From: Pyramidobacter porci
GTDB taxonomy: Bacteria > Synergistota > Synergistia > Synergistales > Dethiosulfovibrionaceae
Assembly: GCF_009695745.1 (NCBI RefSeq)
Contig: NZ_VUNH01000003.1
Coordinates: 1 to 64,000, forward strand
Direction: 5' to 3'
DNA length: 64,000 bases
Under the pieces are notes generated by a model that made no database searches, was not told the origin of the DNA, and saw nothing but the letters and a program-made list of their open reading frames with translations. Below, piece by piece: positions 2,187 to 58,148 of this stretch. A program made the position numbers and the translations under genes. Numbering within the stretch: the stretch's first letter is position 1; every line of letters starts with the position of its first letter.

Positions 2187-4010
2187 ATGAGCAGTTCCTT
2201 TGGCATCTCAAGAAAGACGGTTCTGCGAAACAATCTCAAAACCTTTTTTTCGAAGCCCTACAATGTCATTCTGGTACTCTTGGGTATCGTGCTGACGTTT
2301 TCTACCGTGGCGCCGATCGTTGCCATCGTGGAGGACACCTTTAAGATTCATCCCGGCACCATAGACGCCTACCTGAGCAAACAGGCGAGCGGCTACAGCG
2401 CTGTCAACTACATCGATCTGTTTACCAGCCGACTGGCGAAGAACAATCTTTGGATTCCGCTTCTTAACACGGTCAAGCTGGCCGTTGGCACTTGTTTTGT
2501 GTCCATCTTCTACGGCGGAGTTTTTGCTTTCCTGCTGACGCGGACCGATTTGGCCTGGAAAAAATATCTCAGCTCTGTCTTTATCTTCCCTTACATCATG
2601 CCTCAGTGGACGTTGGCCGTGGTGTGGCAGAATTTATTCAATTCCAACGCCGTCACCGGCACGTCGAACGGGCTTCTCGCCTCGCTGTTCGGTATCCGGA
2701 TGCCGATCTGGTGGTGTCAGGGGCTTTTCCCGAGCGTCATGGTGCTGGGGCTGCACTATGCGGCGTTCGCCTGTATCCTGATTGGCGCCATTTTCCGCAA
2801 CATGGACGCGAATCTGGAGGAGGCTGCCACGATCCTTGACACTCCGCGCTGCAAGACAATGCTGCGCATTACGCTGCCGATGGTGAAGCCGGCGATTCTG
2901 TCCACCGTTTTGCTGGTATTCGGAAGCGCGATGGGTTCCTATCCCGTGCCTCATTATTTGAAATTTACCACCCTGTCTACCAAGTATGTCTCGATGAACT
3001 CCAAATATACCGGCGAGGCAAGCATTCTTGCCATCATTATGATGGTGTTCGGCGTGGCGATCATGCTGCTCAACGAGGTATCTCTGCGCAGCCGCAAGAG
3101 TTACACCACAGTCACCGGAAAATCCGGTCAGATTTCCAAGCTCAGCCTTGGCCGCGGGGGCAAGTATGCCATTGCTCTGTTTCTGGTCGTCCTGACGTTT
3201 TTCACCAGCGTGTTCCCGATCATTTCCTTCGCCTTTGAGACGTTTCTGCCCAACCCCGGCGATTATTCCTTCCTCTACACCGGCAATATCGCCAATCTGA
3301 CCACGAAGTGGTGGACGATCAGCGAAAATGTCACCGAAAGCGGCATGTACGGCCAAAAGGGCATGCTCTACAACGCGACTATTTGGCGCGCCTTTGGCGG
3401 CACTCTGTGGGTTTCCGTGTGCTGCGCGCTGATTGCCGGAACTGTCGGCACCATGATCGGCTATGCCGTCTCCAAAAACCGCAGGAACCGTTTCGCCAAT
3501 TATGTCAATTCCGTGGCGTTCCTGCCGTATCTTATGCCGTCCATTGCCGTGGGAGTGGCCTATTTCGTTCTGTTCTCCACGGACCGGATCAATCTGTTCA
3601 ATACCTACACGGTGCTTATTGTCGTGGGCACGGTCAAGTACATTCCTTTTGCCAGCCGTTCCGCTCTGAATTCGATGCTGCAGCTTTCCGGCGAGATCGA
3701 GGAGGCCGCCGTCATTCAGAACGTTCCCTGGCTCAAGCGCATGACGAAGATCATCATCCCCATTCAAAAGTCGTCCATCATCAGCGGCTATCTGCTGCCG
3801 TTCATGACCTGCCTGCGCGAGCTGTCGCTGTTCATGCTGCTGTGCACACAGGGATTCATCCTCTCGACCACGCTGGATTACTTTGACGAGATGGGGCTGT
3901 ACGCTTTTTCCAGCGGCATCAATCTCATTCTGATCATCACCATCCTGGTCTGCAACACGCTTGTCAACAAGATCACGGGAGCGAGCCTGGATAAAGGAAT
4001 CGGAGGATAA
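2187..4010 (+). CDS. ABC importer permease, two fused membrane domains
   Basis: 607 aa inner-membrane permease with two MetI-type (BPD_transp_1) domains in one chain, as in FbpB/ThiP-like transporters. EAA loops that contact the ATPase are visible in each half: EEAATILDTPRCKTM about residues 210-225 and EEAAVIQNVPWLKRM near 510-525. About 12 hydrophobic segments are present. The start is the ATG at 2187 behind GGGAGGA (2173-2179); an upstream in-frame GTG at 2139 has no ribosome site. The gene lies 107 bp after the binding protein and 5 bp before the ATPase, so it is clearly co-transcribed. Confidence 0.9.
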   Translation: MSSSFGISRKTVLRNNLKTFFSKPYNVILVLLGIVLTFSTVAPIVAIVEDTFKIHPGTIDAYLSKQASGYSAVNYIDLFTSRLAKNNLWIPLLNTVKLAVGTCFVSIFYGGVFAFLLTRTDLAWKKYLSSVFIFPYIMPQWTLAVVWQNLFNSNAVTGTSNGLLASLFGIRMPIWWCQGLFPSVMVLGLHYAAFACILIGAIFRNMDANLEEAATILDTPRCKTMLRITLPMVKPAILSTVLLVFGSAMGSYPVPHYLKFTTLSTKYVSMNSKYTGEASILAIIMMVFGVAIMLLNEVSLRSRKSYTTVTGKSGQISKLSLGRGGKYAIALFLVVLTFFTSVFPIISFAFETFLPNPGDYSFLYTGNIANLTTKWWTISENVTESGMYGQKGMLYNATIWRAFGGTLWVSVCCALIAGTVGTMIGYAVSKNRRNRFANYVNSVAFLPYLMPSIAVGVAYFVLFSTDRINLFNTYTVLIVVGTVKYIPFASRSALNSMLQLSGEIEEAAVIQNVPWLKRMTKIIIPIQKSSIISGYLLPFMTCLRELSLFMLLCTQGFILSTTLDYFDEMGLYAFSSGINLILIITILVCNTLVNKITGASLDKGIGG

Positions 4011-4015
4011 AAGCC

Positions 4016-5650
4016 ATGCCTGAAATCAAATTGGAACATATCACAAAGCGCTGGGGCAAATTCTATGCGGTGGAAGATCTGAGCTTTACCATTCAAGACA
4101 ACGCCTTCGTGACCATGCTCGGCCCTTCCGGCTGCGGCAAAACCACCGTCTTGCGCATGATCGCGGGCTTGGAAACGCCGACCGTCGGACGGATCACCAT
4201 CGGCGATCGGGTCGTTTTTGATTCCTCGCTGGGCATCAACGTGCCCCCCAACAAGCGCAAAGTCGGTTTCCTGTTTCAGAACTACGCGCTCTGGCCCAAC
4301 ATGACGGTGTATCAGAATATCTCCTTCGGTCTGACGAACATCAAAGAGACTTTGCCGGAAATCGATTTCGAGGCGAAAAATGCCGCCCGTCTGGCCGAGC
4401 TGCTGGAGAATGCCGAAGATGTGCGCAAGGTCTTGGGCGAATGTGTCACGAAAGAGGGGGGGCTGGATGAAAAGAGGGCCACGCTCAAGCTCATCGACGC
4501 CTATACGATTTCGCAGTACACTGCCAAGAAGCTTTTCAGCTATCATTTGGAAAAAGAAGCTGATATGGGAGCAGAAGTTGCCTCGCTGCGCCGCAAAGTC
4601 GAGAATGCCAAACATTCCGCACAGGCTGCCGGCGCGGAGCTGGACGCCGAATTCCGCGTTGTCAGAGACGGCGCCGTGACGAAAAGAGTGCGTCGGCTGA
4701 CTCAGGAGGAAATTGACCTGACCGTGCGACGCGTCAGCCGCATTGTCAAAATCGGCATGTTCATGGACCGTTACCCCGCCGAGCTGTCCGGCGGCCAGCA
4801 GCAGCGCGTGGCCATTGCCCGCACCCTTGCGCCGGAGCCGGATGTGCTGTTGATGGATGAGCCGCTGTCGAATCTGGACGCCAAATTGCGTCTGGAGATG
4901 CGTTACGAGCTGCAGCGCCTGCATCTGGAGACCGGATCTACCTTTGTTTACGTTACTCACGACCAGATGGAGGCCATGACGCTGGCCACGCAGATCTGCC
5001 TGATGTCCAACGGCGTCCTGCAGCAGTACGATGCGCCGCTGACAGTCTATCATCATCCGAAAAATCTCTTTGTCGCGGACTTTGTGGGCAATCCGCCCAT
5101 TAACTTTGTCGAAGCTAAGGCCAAGCAGCAGCCTGACGGCTCCGTCGCCCTGACCGCACTCGGAGGCCGCCGCGCCGAGTTTGTGCCGATGAGTCCTGTG
5201 GATCTGGCCGCGTGGGCGGCTCAGCGCGATCGCCGCGCCGCCGAAGCCGCCGAGGAACGCAGCCAGAGGGCGCGGGAGAGCGGCGCTGTGGAAAAGTCGA
5301 ACAAAGACGAGAGATTTCTCTATCATATTGACCGCGCCAGCGGTGAAGACGATTCTCCGACCGATCTGTCCGCGCTGACCGACGAGGACGTGATTATTGC
5401 TGTCCGGCCCGAGTTTCTGGAATTGGCGGAAAGCGGAGCGCTGGAGGGCCGCATTTACGGAGTCATGCCCACCGGCATGGAGTCCACCATTAAGGTGCGC
5501 GTCGACGACTTCCTGCTGACCGGCGTGATCTTCGGCAGCGGCGTGATCTCGATCGGCGCACGCACTTCGGTTCGCTTCAAGGGCAGCAATATTCTGCTTT
5601 TTGACCGTCAATCCGGCGAGTACATCTGCGAAGGCAGCCTGCACTTTTAA
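4016..5650 (+). CDS. ABC importer ATPase with large insertion in the helical domain
   Basis: 544 aa ATP-binding subunit of the importer. Walker [10 protein letters not shown] is at 36-44, Q-loop Gln88, signature [13 protein letters not shown] at 257-269, Walker B VLLMDEP at 277-283, switch His315. In ordinary MalK/PotA-type ATPases Q-loop and signature are about 50 residues apart; here they are 169 apart, because a charged helical segment of about 115 residues (110-235) is inserted. The C-terminal TOBE-like region is also split by a charged stretch (395-455). All catalytic motifs are intact, so the protein should be active. The ribosome site GGAGG is at 4002-4006. Confidence 0.9.
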
Positions 5651-5698
5651 TCTGCGGCGTGTGTTGGACCCGGACAGTCTGGAAGATGGAGGAGACAT

Positions 5699-6409
5699 TT
5701 GCTGCAAGCGGTTATTTTTGATTTGGACGGCGTGCTCTGTTCCACGGACGAATATCACTTCAGGGCGTGGTCGCGGCTGGCGTATGAGCTGCATCTGCCC
5801 TTTGACCGTGAGAAAAACCGCCGTCTGCGGGGCATCGGCCGCATGGACGCGCTGGATATCCTTCTGGAAGACAGCGGCGTCGCCTATACGGCGGAGCAAA
5901 AATCAGTCCTTGCCAGGCGCAAGAACGACTATTACGTGGAACAGCTGCACCGGCTCACGCCGGACGATGTCTTTCCCGGCGTGACGGAAACGCTGCAGGC
6001 GCTCAGAGAGCAAAGCGTAAAAATTGCCGTCGGGTCTTCCTCGAAGAACGCCAAAATCGTTTTGGACCGCTTGCAGCTCACGCCGTTTTTTGACGCGGTT
6101 GCTGACGGAGCGGATAACGTTCGTTCCAAGCCGATGCCGGACGTCTTTTTATGCGCGGCGCGAAAGCTCGGCGTCACCCCTGCGCTCTGTGCCGTGCTGG
6201 AAGATGCCGCAGCCGGCATCGAAGCCGCCAATCGCGCCGGAATGTTTGCCGTTGCCTACGGCCCCGATGCCGCAGCGCACCCCATGGCCAACGCGGCCGT
6301 CACAGAACATCGGCAGATCGTGGACCTGATTGAGACGTGGGGAGAGCTGCCGGAAGGGAAGAAGTCACAGAGAGATGAAGCTACTGCTCGTGCGGTACGG
6401 AGACTCTGA
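5699..6409 (+). CDS. pgmB: Beta-phosphoglucomutase (HAD superfamily)
   Basis: 236 aa. It interconverts beta-glucose-1-phosphate and glucose-6-phosphate, the step after phosphorolysis of maltose- or trehalose-type sugars. The nucleophile motif FDLDGVL is at 7-13 (Asp9 nucleophile, Asp11 acid/base), followed by the family-specific RLRGIGRMDAL; SSSKN and the acidic LEDAAAGIEAA motif complete the HAD core. The start is TTG, supported by GGAGGA at 5689-5694. The last 15 or so residues go past the usual end of the family and run up to a degraded gene, so the original stop may have been lost. No sugar phosphorylase is present in the window. Confidence 0.88.
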   Translation: MLQAVIFDLDGVLCSTDEYHFRAWSRLAYELHLPFDREKNRRLRGIGRMDALDILLEDSGVAYTAEQKSVLARRKNDYYVEQLHRLTPDDVFPGVTETLQALREQSVKIAVGSSSKNAKIVLDRLQLTPFFDAVADGADNVRSKPMPDVFLCAARKLGVTPALCAVLEDAAAGIEAANRAGMFAVAYGPDAAAHPMANAAVTEHRQIVDLIETWGELPEGKKSQRDEATARAVRRL

Positions 6410-6652
6410 TTATTCTGCCGATTCGCTGATGCCGCAGGGCTGGTAAGAGGCAGAGCTTTTAGGCCAGCGGCTGCGCAAGCTGACCGGAAAAAATTTTTGA
6501 TAAACGGGCAGGCAGGCCGAAGCGAAGTTTCTCGCTTCTTCGGAAAGCGGGAAAGGGATCCGAGAAAGCAGCGAAACATTCTGGTGCGCCAGTTTTTGTT
6601 CCCATTGGCGGCCGATACTGTAATGCGTTCCCGAGAATATTTCATGGTTCAT
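6410..6652 (-). pseudogene. Remnant of a C45-type autoproteolytic acyltransferase/hydrolase
   Basis: About 80 codons read MNHEIFSGTHYSIGRQW and then FASACLPVYQKFFP. This resembles the N-terminus of peptidase C45/acyl-CoA:6-APA acyltransferase-like proteins, which are normally over 300 aa with a catalytic Cys after about residue 100. That Cys region is missing: similarity fades after the FFP motif and the frame stops at the end of pgmB. The ribosome site AAGGAG and a promoter (6707-6735) are still intact, so the loss appears recent. The family call is from memory of the motif pattern. Confidence 0.45.
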
Positions 6653-6706
6653 GAGATTGCGCTCCTTATTTTCGTAATAAGGGGCTGCCGGCAACTCCTG
6701 AACAGA

Positions 6707-6735
6707 AGGATAGTGGAATAAAAATTTTATGTCAA
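6707..6735 (-). promoter_or_regulatory. Promoter of the truncated C45-like gene
   Basis: On the minus strand TTGACA (6730-6735) is separated by 17 bp from TATCCT (6707-6712). The -35 is perfect, the -10 matches 4 of 6. It points into the pseudogene. Confidence 0.5.
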
Positions 6736-6870
6736 TGCCTCTGCGGTTTTATAATTTGCACGCCGCACAAGCGATTCAGGAAACCGAACGAAATTGTTTG
6801 CGCGGCACTTGAGATTCTGCCGGCGGTATTGAATGCTTTACCCGAATCGGTTCTCCGCGGGACGCCGATT

Positions 6871-6996
6871 CTGGAGATGGCGGTGGCGGACGACGGGGAG
6901 CCGTATGTGGTGCCGCTGAACTACGACAATCATCTTCTGTATGCTCTTAGGGTGAAAGTTCAATGTGCTCAAGATGACGGACAAGACAAGGGCTAA
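6871..6996 (+). pseudogene. Remnant of a pyridoxamine-5'-phosphate-oxidase-fold protein
   Basis: One open stretch reads MAVADDGEPYVVPLNYDNHLLYAL and ends at TAA 6994. The segment DGEPYVVPLNY is typical of the flavin-binding split-barrel (PNPOx/nitroimidazole-resistance-like) family, normally about 150 aa. Only about 40 codons are recognisable, with no credible start, so it is read as a decayed fragment. The rest of 6997-7060 shows nothing I recognise. Confidence 0.35.
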
Positions 6997-7063
6997 CCCA
7001 ACCTGGACAATCCGAATGCGCCGCTGTGGAACGCGGGGTAATCCAGGGGATAAGCGCGAATAC

Positions 7064-7112
7064 AAAAAGAGTTCTTTCTGACGGCGTAAAACCGCCCGAA
7101 AGAACTCTTTTT
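7064..7112 (-). terminator. Terminator of the ylxM-rplS operon
   Basis: A 15-bp perfect stem AAAAAGAGTTCTTTC / GAAAGAACTCTTTTT (7064-7078 with 7098-7112) encloses a 19-nt loop. The A/T ends give a U-tract in either direction. It lies 33 bp after the rplS stop. Confidence 0.88.
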
Positions 7113-7145
7113 CCGTTGTTAAGCTCAATGCCGCTGCGAAGATGA

Positions 7146-7499
7146 TTAAGCGCGGCGCTCTTTGATGCGGGCGCTCTTGCCGCTGAGCTTGCGCAGATAG
7201 TACAGCTTGGCGCGGCGGACGCGGCCGAGGCGCTTGACTTCGATCTGGGCGACGCTGGGGCAGTGAAGGGGGAAAATCCTCTCCACGCCGACGCCGTTGC
7301 TGATCTTGCGGACGGTGAAGCTTTCGCCGATGCCGCCGTGCTTGCGGGCGATGACGATGCCTTCGAAGGCCTGAAGACGCTCGCGGGCGCCTTCCTTGAC
7401 CTTGACGGAAACGCGCACGGTATCGCCGGCGCGGAAGGCGGGGATCTCGCCCTCCGGCTTCATGTGTTTCTGCTCGACGAGTTTTACTCTGGGATCCAT
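7146..7499 (-). CDS. rplS: 50S ribosomal protein L19
   Basis: 117 aa, full family length. It contains the diagnostic segments [26 protein letters not shown] and IFPLHCPSV, plus the basic KLYYLR tail. L19 sits at the 30S-50S interface. It is the last gene of the operon, 30 bp after trmD, and is followed by the terminator at 7064-7112. The order rpsP-khpA-rimM-trmD-rplS is the classical bacterial one. Confidence 0.98.
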
Positions 7500-7529
7500 A
7501 CTGCATTACCTCCCTGTTTGTCAGGTGTT

Positions 7530-8672
7530 TTATCTGGAACCGAAAAATCGGTCCAGCGTAGCGGAGATCAGAGCGGTGCGAGGCAGTTCTCCACCGGGAG
7601 TCTCCTGGGGCCGCATGGCGATGACGCGGCCCTGCGCCGGCACGGCGCCGAAAAGGATCAGCGCGGGACCGGACGCTTCGACCATTTGCCGTTTGGCTTC
7701 CATCCAGGGCAGGCCTGAAGGGGTTTCCGCGGCGATGACGAGAAGCGGGCCGTGTTTTTTTCTCGCGGCCCACTCCGCCATGCGGCTGACGGAGGGGACG
7801 CATTTGATTTCGGGAACTTCGGACAGTTGGCCGCGGAGAACGTCGAAGTCTTCGCGGTTTAGCGGCGCGGCGATCACTCGCGCGAGGCCGTAGGCTTTTG
7901 CGGTCTGGGCGATCTGCGCAAGTTCGGCGGCGAGTCCCGACGCGTTGGGATCGACTGAAAGGCCAAGGTACGCTTCGTCTTCCAGATAGTCCATCACGTT
8001 GGCGCGTCCGAGCAGGTCGGGACGACGCGAGAGCGTGCGGCTGGCCGCGGCGCGCCGGCGCCATTTTTCGATCTGGGCGTCGTCGCCCGACGTGAGTTCG
8101 GCGGGTACTTCCATGCCCTGCCAGACGGCGGGGCGGGTGAAGTGGGGCGTGTCGAGCATGCCGTTGTAGAACGAGTCGTCGGCGACGGAGAGCTCTTTGC
8201 CGACGACGCCGGGAACGAGGCGCGAGAGCGCGTCGATCAGCGTCATGGCGGGGATCTCGCCGCCGGTGAGAACGTAATCGCCGATGGAGTATTCCAGATC
8301 GACGTACTTCTCGACGAAGCGCTCGTCCAGCCCTTCGTAATGGCCGCAGAAGATGGCCAGATGCTCCTCGCGCGCAAGGGCCTCGACGAGGTCCTGTGTC
8401 AGCACGGCGCCGACGGGCGTAGGGAAGAGGACTTTCGTCCCTTCGCCGCGGACGAAATGCAGCGCCCGCTCCAGCACTTCGGGCATGAGGGTCATGCCGC
8501 CTTTGCCGCCGAAGCTGTAATCGTCGATCTGGCGGTAATTGCCCTGCGCAAAGTCGCGCAGGTTCACGACCTCCACGTCGATCAGCCCTTTTTCCACGGC
8601 GCGGCCGACGATGCTGGTGCGCGCGAAGCTGTCGAGAAAGTCGGGAAACGCGGTGACGACGGTGACTTTCAC
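7530..8672 (-). CDS. trmD: tRNA (guanine-37-N1)-methyltransferase fused to a second RNA-methyltransferase-like domain
   Basis: 380 aa, against 230-250 aa for ordinary TrmD. Residues 1 to about 225 are a complete TrmD with FPDF, HYEGLDERF, the knot motif SIGDYVLTGGE and LDTPHFTRP; it methylates N1 of G37 using SAM. From about residue 228 a second domain begins (LGLSVDPNASGL ... ALILFGAVPAQG). It resembles the SAM-dependent RNA methyltransferase domain (Pfam Methyltrn_RNA_4) that some bacteria encode next to trmD. The start is the GTG at 8672, which overlaps the rimM stop (GTGA); the GTG at 8681 has no separate support. Confidence 0.93.
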   Translation of the reverse strand: MKVTVVTAFPDFLDSFARTSIVGRAVEKGLIDVEVVNLRDFAQGNYRQIDDYSFGGKGGMTLMPEVLERALHFVRGEGTKVLFPTPVGAVLTQDLVEALAREEHLAIFCGHYEGLDERFVEKYVDLEYSIGDYVLTGGEIPAMTLIDALSRLVPGVVGKELSVADDSFYNGMLDTPHFTRPAVWQGMEVPAELTSGDDAQIEKWRRRAAASRTLSRRPDLLGRANVMDYLEDEAYLGLSVDPNASGLAAELAQIAQTAKAYGLARVIAAPLNREDFDVLRGQLSEVPEIKCVPSVSRMAEWAARKKHGPLLVIAAETPSGLPWMEAKRQMVEASGPALILFGAVPAQGRVIAMRPQETPGGELPRTALISATLDRFFGSR

Positions 8673-9196
8673 AGCTCCCACAATCCTTCGATCAGACGCA
8701 ACGTGACGCGGCGCGCGTCCAGATCGGCGTCGCGGAGGAACTCCGGCGCGGCGGGGATCAGGTGGTCCTTGCCGCCTTCGTCCCTGACGACGACGAGCTG
8801 AGAAGCGCCGCTGTCGACGATGTCTTTGACGACGCCGAGCTTACGCCCCCGGTCGTCGTACGCGTCAAGGCCGATCAGGTCGCTGATCCAGAACTCGCCT
8901 GGCGCCAGCGGCACGCGCTCGTCCGGGGCGATCTCCACGGAGCAGCCGCGCAGAAGTTCGGCCTGCTCGATGGTTTCGACGCCTTCCAGCGCGGCCAGAA
9001 AGCAGCCGCGCGTCAGCGCGTCGCGCATGCCTGTCACGCGATAGCTTCCCGCGTGCTTTCCGTCGCGGTAGAAGCTGAGACTCTCCATTTCGAAAAAACG
9101 TTCGGGAAAATCGGTGAGCGGGTGGATCTTGATCTCGCCGCGAAGGCCGTGAGTGCCCTGGACCTGACCGACGACGATTCTGACGGCGCCGGGCAT
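8669..9196 (-). CDS. rimM: 16S rRNA processing protein RimM
   Basis: 175 aa, normal length. N-terminal beta-barrel motif VVGQVQGTHGLRGEIK and C-terminal PRC-barrel segment (WISDLIGLDAYD ... LIPAAPEFL) are both present. It assists maturation of the 30S head, binding S19. It lies 2 bp after khpA and overlaps trmD by 4 bp, so the genes are probably translationally coupled. Confidence 0.96.
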   Translation of the reverse strand: MPGAVRIVVGQVQGTHGLRGEIKIHPLTDFPERFFEMESLSFYRDGKHAGSYRVTGMRDALTRGCFLAALEGVETIEQAELLRGCSVEIAPDERVPLAPGEFWISDLIGLDAYDDRGRKLGVVKDIVDSGASQLVVVRDEGGKDHLIPAAPEFLRDADLDARRVTLRLIEGLWEL

Positions 9197-9198
9197 CG

Positions 9199-9471
9199 TT
9201 ATTCGGCGTCGGCGTTCCTGTCGCCGGTCTCGGCGACGTCGACTTCGACGCTGTCTCCGCCCTTGACGGAGGAGACGCGGACGATCTGACGGATGGCGTT
9301 GATGGTGGCGCCGCGGCGGCCGATGACGCGGCCGGTGTCTTCCTCGGCGACGTGGATCAGCACGCGGAGAACGCCTTCGGCATCCTTTTCGGAAGTGACT
9401 TCAACCGCTTCGGGCTTGGTCACGAGCGAGACGGCGATGGTTTTGACGAGAGCCTGGTAATCCATCGGCAT
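9199..9471 (-). CDS. khpA: KH-domain RNA-binding protein KhpA
   Basis: 90 aa. It contains a single KH domain with the loop RVIGRRGATINAIRQIV, followed by a short acidic tail. KhpA (YlqC) binds RNA with KhpB and is almost always encoded between rpsP and rimM, as here. The ATG at 9471 overlaps the rpsP stop (ATGA). A second in-frame ATG at 9465 would remove two residues. Confidence 0.94.
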   Translation of the reverse strand: MPMDYQALVKTIAVSLVTKPEAVEVTSEKDAEGVLRVLIHVAEEDTGRVIGRRGATINAIRQIVRVSSVKGGDSVEVDVAETGDRNADAE

Positions 9472-9737
9472 CACTCGGCTTTCTCGGAGAACTTGGCCCA
9501 GACGCCGGCTTTCTTGAGAAGCGCGCGGGCCGTGTCGGACGGAAGAGCGCCGTTGCGGAGCCACTTCACGGCGGACTCCTCGTTGATCTTGATCTCGGCG
9601 GGATCCTTCATGGGATCGTACGTGCCGAGCTCCTCGATGAAGCGGCCGTCGCGGGGGCTGTGGGAGTCGGCCACCACGAGACGATAGAAGGGGACCTTTT
9701 TGCGGCCGTGACGTGAAAGACGAATTCTTACTGCCAT
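9471..9737 (-). CDS. rpsP: 30S ribosomal protein S16
   Basis: 88 aa, full length. It begins [25 protein letters not shown], typical for S16, and contains [10 protein letters not shown]. The ATG at 9737 is preceded by AGGAGGT (9747-9753), which decides the start over longer in-frame readings. Confidence 0.97.
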
Positions 9738-51639: not shown

Positions 51640-52713
51640 ATGATCGTGTATCGGATGCTGTTCGCGCGGACGTTCGACCCGATCGCGCTGTACCGCGTGG
51701 AGGAAGGATCGCGCCGCAGCATCACGGCCGACAGGGTGTTTTTCGTCGACGTCAATCCGTCCTACGAGCGCGTCATGAAGGTTCGCCGCCGCGACGTGAT
51801 CGGCCGCAGCTTTCTTGACGTGTGGCCGATTTCCGAACCGCGCTGGTCGCAGATCATCGTCGATTGTCTGCGTCTGGGCCATTCGGTGCACTGCGAGGGC
51901 AACAGCAAGGAGGCCGGCAGCTTTCTCGAGGCGATCGCTTTTCCGTTGCCGCCGGGCATGGCCGCCGTGATTTTTCTCGACAAGACGAAATTGAAGGATG
52001 CCGACGAGGCGCTGGACCGCAAAAAAAACGAACTGCGCAACCTGGCCACGCAGCTGACGCTCACGGAGGAAAGCACGCGCCGTGCCATCGCCGCGGATCT
52101 GCACGACCGTATCGGCTACGATCTGGTGGCGCAGCTTCACAAGATCCGTGCGCTGCGCGAAAAAGTGCGGCCGGCGCTGGAAGCGGAGATGGCGGCCCTG
52201 GAAGCCAACACGGAGAAGTTGATCAGCGAAAGCCGTTCGCTGATCTTCGAGCTCAGCCCCCCCATTCTCAAGGAAGTGGGCATCAATCCAGCCCTGGAGT
52301 CGTTGGCCGACAATCTGCTGACGCCGCACGGCATCAAGTGGGAGCTGCGCGCGAAGGGAACGATGGCCGATTTCTGGGCGGACGACGCCGTTTGCGTGAT
52401 CCTTTACCGCATGGCCCGCGAGCTGCTGATCAACGTGATCAAACACTCCGGAGCGACGCGCGTTACCATCATCGTCAACCGCGGCCCGGGAAAGATCATG
52501 GTCGCGGTGGAAGACAACGGCCGAGGATTTCCCGAGAACTTCGACCTCGATCATAACGAGGCGCGCAAAGAAACAAAGAGTTTCGGACTTTTCAGCATCA
52601 GGGAACGCCTTGAACCCATCGGTGGGACTCTGAAAATCATTTCCATTCCCGGGAAAGGCGCGACCGTTGCCATGGCCTGTCCGTTGAAGTTGAAGGAAGG
52701 GGAGTTCAAATGA
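51640..52713 (+). CDS. Soluble PAS-domain histidine kinase, NarL-system type
   Basis: 357 aa without membrane segments. A PAS domain (about 30-115, with FFVDVNPSYERVMKVRRRDVIG) is followed by a HisKA_3 dimerisation helix RRAIAADLHDRIGYDL, where His155 is the phosphorylated residue, and a HATPase domain (RELLINVIKHSGA, VEDNGRGF, GLFSIRERLEPIGG). A cytoplasmic cue is likely. Its stop overlaps the response-regulator start (ATGA). Confidence 0.91.
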   Translation: MIVYRMLFARTFDPIALYRVEEGSRRSITADRVFFVDVNPSYERVMKVRRRDVIGRSFLDVWPISEPRWSQIIVDCLRLGHSVHCEGNSKEAGSFLEAIAFPLPPGMAAVIFLDKTKLKDADEALDRKKNELRNLATQLTLTEESTRRAIAADLHDRIGYDLVAQLHKIRALREKVRPALEAEMAALEANTEKLISESRSLIFELSPPILKEVGINPALESLADNLLTPHGIKWELRAKGTMADFWADDAVCVILYRMARELLINVIKHSGATRVTIIVNRGPGKIMVAVEDNGRGFPENFDLDHNEARKETKSFGLFSIRERLEPIGGTLKIISIPGKGATVAMACPLKLKEGEFK

Positions 52714-53360
52714 GTATTCGCGTACTTCTGGCCGACGATCACGAAATGTTTCTTGAAGGCCTGCAGGAACTGCTCGGCAAAGCGGATGACATCGAGCTGG
52801 CGGGGTTGGCCCGCGACGGCGCGGAGGTCGTCGCGGCGGCGGAGCGCCTGCAGCCCGACGTGGTGCTCATGGACATGACGATGCCGCGGCTGAACGGCAT
52901 CCAGGCGACGCAGAAGATTGCCGCCGGCTCGTCCGGCACGAAGGTGCTGGTGCTGTCCATGCACGGCGACAAGAATCTGATCGTCGAGAGCCTGAAGGCC
53001 GGGGCCCGCGGCTACGTACTGAAAGAGTGTTCGTCGCAGGAGCTGTGCCTGGCCATCCAAACCGTCGCGAACGGGCAGTATTACCTGACGCCGACGATCC
53101 TTTCGACGCTCATCGGAGATTATCTGCGCCTGACCGAGAGCGAGGCCCAGTCCTCGAACTGCCCGCTGTCGGACCGAGAGCTGGACGTGCTGAAGCTGCT
53201 CGTCAACGGCTGCAATGCCAAACAGATCGCCGAACAGCTCAGCATCAGCAAAAACACGGTGGACACTCACCGCCGCCACATCCTCGACAAGCTTGGCTGC
53301 AACAGCATGGCCGAGCTGACGCGCTACGCCATCCGCGAAGGCTATCTCGACCTCAGCTGA
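52710..53360 (+). CDS. NarL/LuxR-family response regulator
   Basis: 216 aa. Receiver domain with acidic pair Asp9/Asp10 and phosphoacceptor Asp55 (VVLMDMTMP); a C-terminal LuxR helix-turn-helix (LSDRELDVLKLLVNGCNAKQIAEQL ... KNTVDTHRRHILDKL). It is the partner of the kinase at 51640. Its targets are unknown; the betaine operon starts 440 bp downstream and is a possible one. Confidence 0.94.
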   Translation: MSIRVLLADDHEMFLEGLQELLGKADDIELAGLARDGAEVVAAAERLQPDVVLMDMTMPRLNGIQATQKIAAGSSGTKVLVLSMHGDKNLIVESLKAGARGYVLKECSSQELCLAIQTVANGQYYLTPTILSTLIGDYLRLTESEAQSSNCPLSDRELDVLKLLVNGCNAKQIAEQLSISKNTVDTHRRHILDKLGCNSMAELTRYAIREGYLDLS

Positions 53361-53491
53361 AACGCCGTCTCCGCTCGCAAAGAAAAAGAGGGACACGGCC
53401 GTCACGGCGGAACGCAAGGAGAAAATCGGAAACAGCGTCGCCTGTGCGGCAGACAACGAACCATCATGAGAATTTCGTCAGGAAACAACGG

Positions 53492-53528
53492 CAAAGAGCC
53501 GCCTCGCATCGATCGAGGCGGCTCTTTG
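53492..53528 (+). terminator. Terminator of the two-component operon
   Basis: A 15-bp perfect stem (53492-53506 with 53514-53528) with a 7-nt loop; it is 130 bp after the response-regulator stop. The base of the stem is AAAG/CTTT. Confidence 0.8.
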
Positions 53529-53532
53529 TGCA

Positions 53533-53548
53533 TGTTCCACGTGGAACA
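53533..53548. other. parS site 3, perfect palindrome
   Basis: TGTTCCACGTGGAACA is a perfect 16-bp palindrome with the GTTnCACGTGnAAC core of bacterial parS sites bound by ParB/Spo0J. It lies in an intergenic region, 5 bp after the terminator stem. Confidence 0.78.
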
Positions 53549-53675
53549 TTTTGACCGGGAACGGGGGATAAAACACGTTGAGCGACGCCGTCGAATTATC
53601 GCGAGCGACGCGTCATAATTTTTACTACGGACATTTTCACATTTTTCATTATGGAAGTCATTCATTCTTTTTCAT

Positions 53676-53802
53676 TATAATCCAATCGTGAAAAGCAACG
53701 CAGAGGGAATGGAGTGACCGGGCTGAGATCGTTCGGTCATCTCGAAGGGGCATCGGAGGGGATTTGATTCCCGCGAATCTTGAAGAAGGAGTGATTTCAG
53801 TT
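53676..53802 (+). promoter_or_regulatory. Promoter and structured leader of the betaine operon
   Basis: A perfect TATAAT (53676-53681) without a good -35 is followed by a leader of about 115 nt. It contains an imperfect hairpin (GAGTGACCG near 53712 with CGGTCATCTC near 53735). A CTGAGAT in the loop recalls the TPP box, but the rest of a TPP riboswitch is absent. It may be a regulatory leader of unknown type. Confidence 0.4.
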
Positions 53803-55110
53803 ATGAGACTTGAAATCGGAGCCTTTCATGTGACCGACATCAAGTTCGGCGACCATACGGGCTACAGCAAGGGCATTCTCACCGTCAACAAGGAAGAACT
53901 GCTCAAGGTCGTCAAGGAAGACGAGCACATCACCACCGCCGATCTGAAGATCGTACATCCCGGCGACGAAGTGGTGCTCTGCCCCGTCAAGGAAGCGCTG
54001 GAAATGCGCTGTAAAGTATCCGGCGGCCACGGGATCTTCCCCGGCGTGCTGTCCGAGATGGAGATCGCCGGTTCCGGCCGCACGCATTGTCTGCAGGACT
54101 GCTCGCTGCTCGTCGTCGGCGAACATTGGGGGGGATTCCAGGACGGTCTGATCGCCATGGGCGGCAAGTATCAACATCACACCATCTTCGGCGATATGCC
54201 CAATCTGGTGCTGGTGGCCGACACCGACGAAGAGTTCGAAAAGCGTGAGCAGCAGAAGAAAAACCACGCCCTGCGCTGGGCCGGCATGCGCCTTGCCGAA
54301 TACGTTGGCCAGTGCGTGAAAGATCTCGAACCCGAGAACATCGAAGTCTACGACCTGCCCGCCCTGAACGAACGCGGCCCCGAAGTGGACAAGCTGCCCC
54401 GCGTGGTTTATCTGCTCCAGCCGCAGACCCAGATGGAGACGATGGGCTACAACACGCTGATCTACGGCTGGGACGGCAACCACATCCTGCCCACCTTCAT
54501 GCATCCCAACGAGCTGCTCGACGGCTGCATGGTGTCGGGTTCCTTCATGCCCACGTCCTCGAAAATCTCGACCTACGAGTTCGCCGTCAATCCGATGATC
54601 AAGAAGCTCTACGAGCAGCACGGCAAGACCATCAATTTCCTCGGCGTCGTCATGTCCACGCTGAACGTGAAAATGGACGAAAAGGTCCGCTGCGCCAAGA
54701 TGGCCGGTCAGATCTGTTCCTCGCTCGGCGTCGACGCCGCGGTCGTCGTCGAAGAAGGGTACGGCAACCCCGACGTCGATTACACCGCCATGCTGGTCGA
54801 GCTCGAGCGCCTCGGCATCAAGACCATCGGCCTGTCGGACGAGTGCACCGGCCGCGACGGCGCGTCTCAGCCCCTCGTCTCCATGAATCCCGCCACCGAC
54901 GCGCTGGTGACCACCGGCAACGTCTCGCAAATGTACGAGTTCCCGAAGATGGAAGTGATCGGCGAGCTCGAAGCGCTGGCCCGCGACGGAAACTCCGGCG
55001 GCTGGGAAGGCTGCATCCATCCCGACGGCTCCTTCGTGATGGAAAACAACGGCATGTTCTGCGCCAACCACATCAGCGGCTACTCCAAGAGAACCTGCGC
55101 TGATTTTTAA
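53803..55110 (+). CDS. grdI: Betaine reductase component B, proprotein subunit
   Basis: 435 aa, the GrdE/GrdG/GrdI group. The N-terminus MRLEIGAFHVTDIKFGD and SGRTHCLQDC are family-like. In GrdE the proprotein is cut at a Cys that becomes a pyruvoyl group; here Cys242 in ELLDGCMVSG is at the same position as the cysteine I recall for C. sticklandii GrdE. The pyruvoyl group forms a Schiff base with the substrate amine so that component A can take over the carboxymethyl group. The BCCT transporter downstream makes betaine the likeliest substrate; sarcosine or glycine are alternatives. GAAGGAG precedes the ATG. Confidence 0.87.
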   Translation: MRLEIGAFHVTDIKFGDHTGYSKGILTVNKEELLKVVKEDEHITTADLKIVHPGDEVVLCPVKEALEMRCKVSGGHGIFPGVLSEMEIAGSGRTHCLQDCSLLVVGEHWGGFQDGLIAMGGKYQHHTIFGDMPNLVLVADTDEEFEKREQQKKNHALRWAGMRLAEYVGQCVKDLEPENIEVYDLPALNERGPEVDKLPRVVYLLQPQTQMETMGYNTLIYGWDGNHILPTFMHPNELLDGCMVSGSFMPTSSKISTYEFAVNPMIKKLYEQHGKTINFLGVVMSTLNVKMDEKVRCAKMAGQICSSLGVDAAVVVEEGYGNPDVDYTAMLVELERLGIKTIGLSDECTGRDGASQPLVSMNPATDALVTTGNVSQMYEFPKMEVIGELEALARDGNSGGWEGCIHPDGSFVMENNGMFCANHISGYSKRTCADF

Positions 55111-55130: not shown

Positions 55131-56447
55131 ATGCTGAAAGCGATTCACTACATCAACCAGTTCTTCGGCCAAGTCGGCGGCGAAGACGCGGCTGACGCCA
55201 AGCCCATTTTCCACGACAATCTCGTCGGCTGCTCGATGATGCTGAACCAGATGGTGAAGCCCGACATCGAAGTCACCAACACCATCGTCTGCGGCGACAA
55301 CTACATCACCAACCACACCGACGAGGCCCTGAAAGAGATCTTCGCCTGGCTCGACACGAAGAAATTCGACATCTTCTTCGCCGGTCCCGCCTTCATGGCC
55401 GGACGTTACGGCGTCGGCTGCGGCATCATGTGCAAGGCGGTGGCCGAGCGCTATCACGTGCCCGTGATCACCTCCATGAACGAGGAGAACCCCGGCGTCG
55501 AAGAGTACAAATCCGTGTGCTACATCTTCAAGGGCGGCCGCAAGGCGACTTTCATGAAGGACGACGTGACCGCCATGGCCGCGTTCGCCAAGAAGATCGC
55601 CAAGGGCGAAGAGCTTCTGCCCGCCGCTCAGGAAGGCTATTTCCCCCGCGGCATCCGCGCCGAGATCCCTCAGCCCGACGGGCGCATCGCCGCCGATCGC
55701 GTCATCGACATGCTGCTCAAGAAGCTCAAGGGCGAGCCGTTCCAGACCGAGCTGATCATTCCCAAGATGGAGAAGATCCCCCCCGCCCCCGCGCTCAAGG
55801 ATCTGTCTCACGCCACCGTCGCGCTCGTTTCCTCCTCCGGCGTCGTGCCCGTGGACAATCCCGACCGCATCCAGAGCGCTTCCGCCCAGAAGTGGGGCAA
55901 GTACGACATCTCCAAGCTCGACAACCTGCCCGAGGGCGTGTTCAAGACGATCCACGCCGGCTTCGACCCCGCCGCCATGTGCCACATTCCCGATCGCGGC
56001 ATCCCTGTGGATGCTATGCGCTACTTCGAGAAGCAGGGCAAGATCGGCAAACTCTATGATTATTACTATGTGACTGTTGGCACCGGCACGACCCAGGCTT
56101 TTGCTGCCAAGTTCGGCAAAGAGATCGCCGCCGAGCTTCACGCCGCCAAAGTCGACGCCGTCGTGCTTACCGCCACCTGAGGCACGTGCACTCGTTGCGG
56201 GGCAACGATGGGCAAAGAAATCGAAAAAAGCGGTATTCCCGTGGTCGTGATGTGCAATTTGATTGACGTGGCCAAGACCGTCGGCGCCAACCGCATGGTC
56301 CAGACCGTGTCCGTTCCCTATCCGCTGGGCGATCCCGAACTGAGCGCCGAAGCCGAGTGGCAGCTGCGCACCAGCCGCGTCGAGGCGGCTCTGAACGCTC
56401 TGGCGACGGATATTACCGAACCGACGGTGTTCCCCTCCAAGTTCTGA
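55131..56447 (+). CDS. grdH: Betaine reductase component B, selenoprotein subunit
   Basis: 438 aa including selenocysteine. The frame is interrupted by TGA at 56178-56180 (codon 350) and continues in frame to the TGA at 56445. Reading the first TGA as Sec gives LTAT-U-GTCTRCGATMGKEIE, the UxxCxxC redox motif of GrdB/GrdF/GrdH. A hairpin follows directly (see SECIS entry). Without recoding one would see a truncated 349 aa protein plus a 79 aa orphan. With GrdI it binds the substrate; components A and C (GrdA, GrdCD) are not in the window. It starts 20 bp after grdI with GGGGAGG. Confidence 0.95.
56178..56210 (+). promoter_or_regulatory. Selenocysteine codon and bacterial SECIS hairpin
   Basis: TGA at 56178-56180 is followed by a hairpin CGTTGC-GGG-GCAACG (56193-56207): six perfect pairs and a GGG loop whose apex lies about 19 nt after the TGA, within the range for SelB-binding bacterial SECIS elements. 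The hairpin is translated as part of the gene. Confidence 0.85.
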
Positions 56448-56502
56448 TCTGACGGAACGGCGGAGCGAGATTCTCTCGACAAGAGACAAGGCAGTAGGTT
56501 CG

Positions 56503-56548
56503 AGGGGCTGAAAGGACGTTTTTCAAACGCGAATTTCAGCCCCTTGTT
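56503..56548 (+). terminator. Terminator after grdH
   Basis: AGGGGCTGAAA (56503-56513) pairs with TTTCAGCCCCT (56534-56544), an inner CGTTT/AAACG stem extends it, and TGTTTT follows. The transporter gene behind it thus may have its own promoter or depend on read-through. Confidence 0.85.
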
Positions 56549-56585
56549 TTAAATGTTCCTTCCCATTGTGAAAGGAGTCACTTGA

Positions 56586-58148
56586 ATGTCGGACAAAGTT
56601 TCACGGAATCCTCTCGACCACGGCCGGCTTGACTGGTCAGGCTGCGTTGATACCAAGAGCAACGCGGTTTATTACGTTTCGATATTGATCACTTTTGCGG
56701 CAGTCCTCTGGGGGCTGCTGTCGCCCGATTCCTTCGGCACTTTCGCCAAGTCGCTGTTCAACGGCCTGACGACTTATTTCGGCGCCGGATACATGTTCTT
56801 CATGAACGTTTTCGTCATCTTCTGCCTCTTCATCGCTGCCGGCCGTTTCGGCAAAGTCCGCCTGGGCAAGGCGGAGGACCGCCCCGAGTACAGCAATCTT
56901 GCCTGGTTCGCCATGCTGTTCTCGGCCGGCATGGGGGTGGGGCTGGTGTTTTACGGCGCCGCCGAGCCGCTGATTTATTTCACCAATCCGCCCTTTGGCG
57001 CAGCGCCCGAGTCCGTTCAGGCCGCCCGCGACGCGCTGCAGATCTCCTTCTTCCACTGGGGGCTGCACCCCTGGGCAGGTTACGCCGTTATCGCCATGCC
57101 GCTGGCCTACTATCAGTTCCGCTACAACGCGCCCGGTCTGATCAGTTCGATCTTCATCCCGCTGGCCGGAGAGAAGGCCGTCAAGGGGACGTTCGGCAAA
57201 ATCGTCGACATTCTCGCCACGTTCGCCACGCTGGGCGGCATCACCACGTCTCTGGGCCTTGGCACGCTGCAGTTGAACTCGGGCGCCAACACCGTCTTCG
57301 GACTGCCCAAGACCACGTTCGTTCAGGTCGTCATCATCGCGATTCTTGCCGTGCTTTACACCGGTTCGGCCGTGCTCGGCATCAAAAAGGGCATTTCCAA
57401 GGTGGCCGATTTCAACATCCGCGTGTGCTTCATCCTCATGGCCCTGATGTTTATCGTCGGCCCTTCGCTGCCGATCGTCGAGTCTTTCATGACGGGTATC
57501 GGCGATTTCCTCAGCGGCTTGGTCGAAGAGAGCTTCATGATGGATCCCTACGGCGCCGGGTACCAGAAGCATCTCGCCAACTGGACGCTGTATTACTGGG
57601 CCTGGTGGATCGCCTGGGCGCCTTTCGTCGGCGCTTTCGTGGCCCGCATTTCCCGCGGCCGCACTATCAGCGAGTTCATCGCCGGCGTTCTGATCGTTCC
57701 CGCGCTCGGCAGCGCGGTCTGGTTCGCCATCTTCGGCACTTCGGCGCTGCATCTGGAGCTGGTCCAGCACGTCAAGATCGCGGCGGAGGTCATCAAGGAC
57801 GTTTCCGTCGGCGCCTTCGAGCTGTACAAGCACTATCCTCTCGGCACCGCCATGTCTTACGGCATGATCGTGCTGATCACGACGTTCTTCGTCACTTCGG
57901 CCAATTCGGCCACGTTCGTTCTGGCCGCGTACTGCCAGCACGGCACCAGCGATCCGTCCAAGGCCAAGATGGCCATCTGGGGCGTCCTCATGGGCGCTCT
58001 GGCCGTCGTGCTTTTGACCACCGGCGGCCTGATCAACATTCAGACCATCTCGTTGTGCACGGCGCCTCCGTTCGCGTTCATCATGTTCTTCTCCTGCTGG
58101 GGCTTTTGGAAAGCCCTCAACGCCGACGAGCGGAACGGGCGTCTGTAA
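56586..58148 (+). CDS. BCCT-family glycine betaine/carnitine transporter
   Basis: 520 aa, 12 membrane segments. The family signature NWTLYYWAWW is exact, the glycine-rich substrate helix reads SAGMGVGLVFYGAAEP, and WWIAWAPFVGAFVARISRGR follows. It imports betaine, choline or carnitine. Placed after grdI/grdH it most likely supplies betaine for reduction rather than for osmoprotection: the C-terminal tail is short, without a long osmosensing extension. AAAGGAG precedes the ATG. Confidence 0.92.
   Translation: MSDKVSRNPLDHGRLDWSGCVDTKSNAVYYVSILITFAAVLWGLLSPDSFGTFAKSLFNGLTTYFGAGYMFFMNVFVIFCLFIAAGRFGKVRLGKAEDRPEYSNLAWFAMLFSAGMGVGLVFYGAAEPLIYFTNPPFGAAPESVQAARDALQISFFHWGLHPWAGYAVIAMPLAYYQFRYNAPGLISSIFIPLAGEKAVKGTFGKIVDILATFATLGGITTSLGLGTLQLNSGANTVFGLPKTTFVQVVIIAILAVLYTGSAVLGIKKGISKVADFNIRVCFILMALMFIVGPSLPIVESFMTGIGDFLSGLVEESFMMDPYGAGYQKHLANWTLYYWAWWIAWAPFVGAFVARISRGRTISEFIAGVLIVPALGSAVWFAIFGTSALHLELVQHVKIAAEVIKDVSVGAFELYKHYPLGTAMSYGMIVLITTFFVTSANSATFVLAAYCQHGTSDPSKAKMAIWGVLMGALAVVLLTTGGLINIQTISLCTAPPFAFIMFFSCWGFWKALNADERNGRL

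What the first reader, a model, noticed from the sequence alone, without database searches (positions are those of the whole stretch)
55131..56447. Selenoprotein betaine reductase hidden behind an in-frame UGA
The open frame that ends at TGA 56178 continues in frame for 88 codons with perfect GrdB-type sequence, and the TGA falls in a UxxCxxC motif. A compact hairpin (56193-56207) has the position of a bacterial SECIS. Standard gene callers would produce a truncated protein and a spurious small ORF. The organism must therefore have selA, selB, selC and selD.
Basis: partly seen in the sequence, partly recalled or inferred. Interest (0 to 1): 0.72.

Follow-up and report, generated by a model that had tools for sequence, protein, structure and literature searches.

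The report
Selenocysteine betaine reductase gene, known family

Summary
Confirmed, and ordinary. The frame 55131-56447 is one gene with a single in-frame TGA at 56178-56180 (codon 350, in UGTCTRC = UxxCxxC). Rfam SECIS_4 matches 56181-56218 above its gathering score. TGA and hairpin recur in all 113 motif-bearing copies checked. The outer five stem pairs form in 98 of 108 distinct sequences, against about 2 expected if synonymous codons were drawn from each gene's own usage. The genome has tRNA-Sec, SelA, SelB, SelD, the selenoprotein GrdA, both component C subunits, and three other GrdB paralogues with the same TGA.

Substrate: the protein falls in a 64-row betaine (GrdH-type) clade. Its alpha subunit lacks the pyruvoyl-forming cysteines (SGSFMPTSSK instead of SGNCVSACDK), and a BCCT transporter follows. 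The alpha motif separates this clade from the glycine clade without exception; the transporter is found only in this clade. The score against NCBI's strict GrdH model is below cut-off (673 vs 775 bits), as for some other members.

UGA-containing grdB genes, SECIS and a betaine set are already published for Synergistota (PMC10838667). No expression or enzyme data were available. A side lead, another component B with UxxGxxC and a TRAP transporter, is less well explained.

The parts
55131..56447 (+). grdH/grdB-type gene: betaine reductase component B beta subunit, selenoprotein of 438 residues (349 + Sec + 88); stop TGA 56445-56447
56178..56180 (+). in-frame TGA read as selenocysteine (codon 350, UxxCxxC)
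56181..56218 (+). SECIS element (Rfam RF01990 SECIS_4); core hairpin 56193-56207 CGTTGC-GGG-GCAACG
   Evidence: conservation and compensatory changes
53803..55110 (+). grdI-type gene: component B alpha subunit (PF09338) without the cysteines that yield a pyruvoyl group (SGSFMPTSSK, from residue 246); GTG 53800 or TTG 53764 are alternative starts
56501..56551 (+). probable intrinsic terminator: long hairpin then TTGTTTT, between the beta gene and the transporter
   Evidence: -25.3 kcal/mol, z -3.65; the simple terminator scan missed it because its loop limit is 8
56586..58148 (+). BCCT-family transporter, probably glycine betaine uptake
   Evidence: NF047988 588 bits, below cut-off 650; PF02028 579 bits; linkage
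51640..52713 (+). sensor histidine kinase (HisKA_3/HATPase), likely regulator
   Evidence: a similar pair lies upstream in L038, L039 and L048
52710..53360 (+). NarL/LuxR-type response regulator, likely partner of the kinase

Best explanation
The gene encodes the beta subunit (GrdH-type) of component B of a betaine reductase. Its UGA at codon 350 is translated as selenocysteine by SelB carrying Sec-tRNA-Sec, directed by the SECIS hairpin 12 bases downstream. The Sec attacks the methylene carbon of glycine betaine brought in by the neighbouring BCCT transporter. Trimethylamine leaves and a carboxymethyl-selenoether passes to selenoprotein GrdA. Component C then makes acetyl phosphate, which yields ATP; thioredoxin re-reduces the system. 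The alpha subunit needs no pyruvoyl group because a quaternary amine cannot form a Schiff base. Shown here: gene anatomy, SECIS, machinery, relatives, linkage. Inferred from the known family chemistry: Sec insertion in vivo, substrate, product and energy yield. Confidence is for Sec decoding (about 0.98) together with betaine as main substrate (about 0.9).
For: Rfam SECIS_4 over gathering score in the right place. TGA in all 113 copies and in three paralogues of the same genome; phylum-wide search gives one internal TGA for essentially every full-length homologue in 135 of 188 genomes. Stem kept far beyond codon usage: 98 of 108 with the outer five pairs, null mean 2.2, maximum 10 of 2000 draws. 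Compensatory stems CGA/TCG, AGA/TCT, CGC/GCG. SelA, SelB, SelD, tRNA-Sec, YedF. GrdA and both component C subunits over NCBIfam cut-offs. Betaine: best model NF040795 GrdH, betaine clade of 64 rows with SH-aLRT 100, alpha motif SGSFMPTSSK and BCCT neighbour.
Against: No protein, Se-labelling or enzyme data. NF040795 score is below its strict cut-off (673 vs 775), though clade members L038, L054 and L072 also miss it. BCCT model score is also below its strict cut-off. The hairpin fold alone is not significant. Related sequences are not independent, so 98 of 108 overstates the number of events. Its loop is GGG where most relatives have GGT.
Confidence: 0.92

Rival explanations
1. Same selenoprotein, but the substrate is another quaternary ammonium compound carried by BCCT proteins (for example carnitine- or choline-derived) rather than glycine betaine.
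For: BCCT transporters differ in substrate; the GrdH and betaine-BCCT models are both missed at their strict cut-offs.
Against: Clade includes members over the GrdH cut-off (L037, L041, L045, L064), and the best BCCT model is the betaine one by over 100 bits. The reductase chemistry needs an acetate-type carbon bearing the amine (family knowledge).
Confidence: 0.06
2. The TGA is a disabling mutation or a sequencing error in a broken or Cys-type gene.
For: None beyond the stop itself.
Against: Same TGA in paralogues, in three same-genus genomes at 98-99% identity and across phyla; 88 downstream codons conserved; SECIS match.
Confidence: 0.01
3. TGA is reassigned genome-wide (for example to tryptophan), so no SECIS is needed.
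For: None.
Against: The same gene ends in TGA (56445-56447), which is not followed by a SECIS_4 match; tRNA-Sec with anticodon TCA and SelB are present.
Confidence: 0.005

Closest known systems
Betaine reductase component B, GrdH/GrdI (Peptoclostridium acidaminophilum and other Clostridia; NCBIfam NF040795, TIGR01918, Pfam PF07355)
   Same: Full-length homology, UxxCxxC with Sec, SECIS, non-pyruvoyl alpha subunit, BCCT linkage in most members
   Different: Belongs to a Synergistota branch that scores below the strict GrdH cut-off; here grdA and component C lie on other contigs
grdB genes of Cloacibacillus porcorum MFA1, Synergistota (PMC10838667)
   Same: Multiple UGA-containing grdB genes with SECIS, complete Sec machinery, betaine set next to a betaine transporter (opuD), GrdI without processing cysteines
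   Different: Different family of the phylum; four copies here against eight there
SECIS_4, Rfam RF01990
   Same: 38-nt element directly after the UGA, same stem and 3-base loop
   Different: Loop GGG instead of the consensus GGU; lower score than the C13 copy (47 vs 60 bits)
Glycine reductase GrdB/GrdE (TIGR01917)
   Same: Same fold family, same Sec site, shares GrdA and component C
   Different: 46% identity to the in-genome C13 copy; glycine alpha subunits carry SGNCVSACDK; C13 copy has a glycine riboswitch upstream

Membership tests
GrdB/GrdH selenoprotein B family (TIGR01918, PF07355) | Full-length profile match over curated cut-off | tested here: met
   606 bits vs 65.45; PF07355 508 vs 22
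GrdB/GrdH selenoprotein B family (TIGR01918, PF07355) | Sec encoded by UGA in UxxCxxC | tested here: met
   TGA 56178 in UGTCTRC, kept in 113 of 113 copies
Bacterial selenoprotein genes | SECIS hairpin just downstream of the UGA | tested here: met
   RF01990, 47.1 bits vs 38; stem conservation
Bacterial selenoprotein genes | selA, selB, selC, selD in the genome | tested here: met
   SelA 557 bits, SelB 369, SelD 342, tRNA-Sec 66 bits, all over cut-off
Betaine reductase GrdH (NF040795) | Strict NCBI exception-level cut-off | tested here: not met
   673 vs 775 bits; it is still the best model, and clade members L038, L054 and L072 also fall short
Betaine reductase GrdH/GrdI | Groups with betaine-type sequences in a tree | tested here: met
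   64-row clade, SH-aLRT 100, quick tree; alone it does not prove substrate
Betaine reductase GrdH/GrdI | Alpha subunit without pyruvoyl-forming cysteines | tested here: met
   SGSFMPTSSK vs SGNCVSACDK; lack of cysteines in GrdI stated in PMC10838667
Betaine reductase GrdH/GrdI | Shares GrdA and component C | tested here: met
   GrdA 258 bits, C alpha 561, C beta 654, over cut-offs
Betaine reductase GrdH/GrdI | Reduces glycine betaine to trimethylamine and acetyl phosphate | not testable with these tools
   needs enzyme assay

The most novel reading that the evidence does not exclude
The Synergistota branch, which misses the strict GrdH model, reduces a different quaternary ammonium compound, making this a component B of new specificity.
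Probability: 0.06. Interest if true: 0.4.

Novelty: already known. Interest (0 to 1): 0.12.

Why it matters
It marks the organism as a probable producer of trimethylamine from betaine by a selenium-dependent route, relevant to gut and rumen trimethylamine budgets, where surveys of grdH report mostly Firmicutes and some Brachyspira (PMC6964529). It is also a clean example of a gene that callers without Sec rules would truncate. It does not change what is known of the mechanism.

Tried and rejected
Single-sequence folding does not make the hairpin significant. Simple promoter and terminator scans found nothing useful near the genes and missed the long terminator. No solved structure matched by sequence, and no structure prediction was run because the family is clear. 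Copies listed with 2 TGA in other genomes (G032, G104) were checked and are only a terminal TGA counted with the Sec TGA. Reassignment of TGA and pseudogene readings were rejected (see rivals). Papers naming Pyramidobacter with betaine and trimethylamine gave nothing on this gene.

Full report
Observation. The frame described is exact. ATG 55131 opens 349 codons that end at TGA 56178-56180; the same frame then runs 88 more sense codons to TGA 56445-56447. Codon 350 sits in TATUGTCTRCGAT. Read through, the protein matches the selenoprotein B family over its full length (TIGR01918 606 bits, cut-off 65; PF07355 508 bits, cut-off 22), and its best model is betaine reductase GrdH, NF040795, at 673 bits.

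SECIS. Rfam SECIS_4 (RF01990) matches 56181-56218 at 47.1 bits against a gathering score of 38. A search of the whole genome finds two such elements: this one and one directly after the TGA of a paralogue on C13 (60.3 bits). The other two paralogues (C12, C8) have the same type of hairpin but fall below the threshold. Taken alone the fold is not exceptional (z -0.99), so I tested it on relatives. In 108 distinct copies the five outer pairs form in 98. If each gene drew the five codons (Arg Cys Gly Ala/Ser Thr, or its variant) from its own synonymous usage, the mean would be 2.2 and the maximum in 2000 draws was 10. Arg355 is CGT in 104 of 108, although CGT is 17% of Arg codons in these genes and AGA is 42%. 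Changes occur in pairs: CGA with TCG (in-genome C12), AGA with TCT (Peptoclostridium L097), CGC with GCG (L078, L081). Relatedness inflates the counts but not the direction.

Conservation of the TGA. In the phylum sample 135 of 188 genomes have a homologue, and essentially every full-length one has one internal TGA. Three same-genus genomes hold orthologues at 98-99% identity. A chance stop, an error or a Cys form is excluded in practice.

Machinery. The window's own genome (2.5 Mb, 22 contigs, 98.4% complete) has tRNA-Sec with anticodon TCA (C3:251093, 66.3 bits, cut-off 47). It has adjacent selA and selB (C9:46196-49482) with the selenium protein YedF beside them on the other strand. selD (C5:135979) is itself interrupted by one in-frame TGA. 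GrdA (C10:7468) has TGA in CFVUTAAGAMD. Component C alpha and beta lie together on C1. The thioredoxin candidate by the C13 set fell just below the cut-off of its model. The pathway to acetyl phosphate can be complete.

Substrate. Four component B sets exist: C3 (this window), C13, C12 and C8. The window's alpha subunit reads SGSFMPTSSK where the C12 and C13 subunits read SGNCVSACDK. In related loci the alpha motif separates two groups without exception: loci of the betaine clade have SGSFMPxSSK or a near variant (SYMCCSSK), and glycine-type loci have SGNCV(S/A)xCDK. A BCCT gene was found within the fetched flank in most betaine-clade loci and in no glycine-type locus. A quick maximum-likelihood tree puts the window protein in the 64-row betaine clade (SH-aLRT 100, stem 0.6 changes per column). 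Betaine is a quaternary amine and cannot form the Schiff base that the pyruvoyl group serves, which fits the lost cysteines; PMC10838667 notes the same for GrdI. Two strict NCBI cut-offs are missed (GrdH 673 vs 775; betaine BCCT 588 vs 650), so the name GrdH rests on clade and context, not on that cut-off.

Arrangement. A histidine kinase and a NarL-type regulator lie upstream, and a similar pair lies near the betaine genes in L038, L039 and L048. A strong terminator-like hairpin at about 56501-56546 separates the beta gene from the transporter, so the transporter may have its own transcript or depend on read-through.

Known or new. Leong et al. (PMC10838667) describe several UGA-containing grdB genes with SECIS elements, full Sec machinery and a betaine set beside a betaine transporter in the Synergistota member Cloacibacillus porcorum. 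The family, the SECIS type and the phylum are all known. The organism here is in Synergistota by kinship of the searched genomes; its small size and family suggest Pyramidobacter, but I could not name it, so that is inference. I file this as already known.

Side lead. The C8 set is a coherent subgroup with UGTGTRC (the first Cys of UxxCxxC replaced by Gly), an alpha motif SGNCAAPCHK, a GrdX gene and a TRAP transporter in most of the loci. Nine further copies from other families share both motifs, and neighbours recur in eight fetched regions. It keeps the pyruvoyl cysteine, so it probably acts on a primary or secondary amine; which one is unknown.

Noticed in passing
L024 (G000:C8:40000-58000), GrdB-like 7510-8820, alpha 6214-7494, GrdX 8826-9245, TRAP DctQ/M/P about 3164-6083: Fourth component B set with UGTGTRC (UxxGxxC) and alpha motif SGNCAAPCHK, a TRAP transporter and GrdX. 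Nine further copies in other Synergistota families share both motifs, with similar neighbours; not found in same-genus genomes. Substrate unknown; possibly a new specificity.
   Followed up: partly
window 56199-56204 and L115, L116, L117 and others: SECIS loop coupling: Ser358 (TCA) always comes with Gly357 GGG (11 of 11), Ala358 with GGG in only 4 of 97 (Fisher p 4e-12, not corrected for relatedness, but in several separate lineages). The window copy (GGG GCA) is the step between GGT GCA and the GGG TCA of its three same-genus orthologues.
   Followed up: partly
L028 (G000:C5:135979-136911): SelD of this genome is itself a probable selenoprotein: one in-frame TGA near the N-terminus in SHSSGUAAKIGPEDL.
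   Followed up: no
L023 11293-11407, minus strand: Glycine riboswitch aptamer (RF00504, 56 bits) upstream of the C13 component B genes, supporting C13 as the glycine reductase.
   Followed up: no
L022 (G000:C12), GrdB 8417-9727 minus strand: C12 component B beta reads UGSCTRC, best model sarcosine GrdF below cut-off (628 vs 800 bits); a long spurious ORF runs through the upstream alpha gene in the same frame.
   Followed up: no
window 53360-53803: About 440-base gap between the response regulator and the alpha gene, with a 15-bp hairpin on the minus strand at 53528-53492; no Rfam family over threshold.
   Followed up: no
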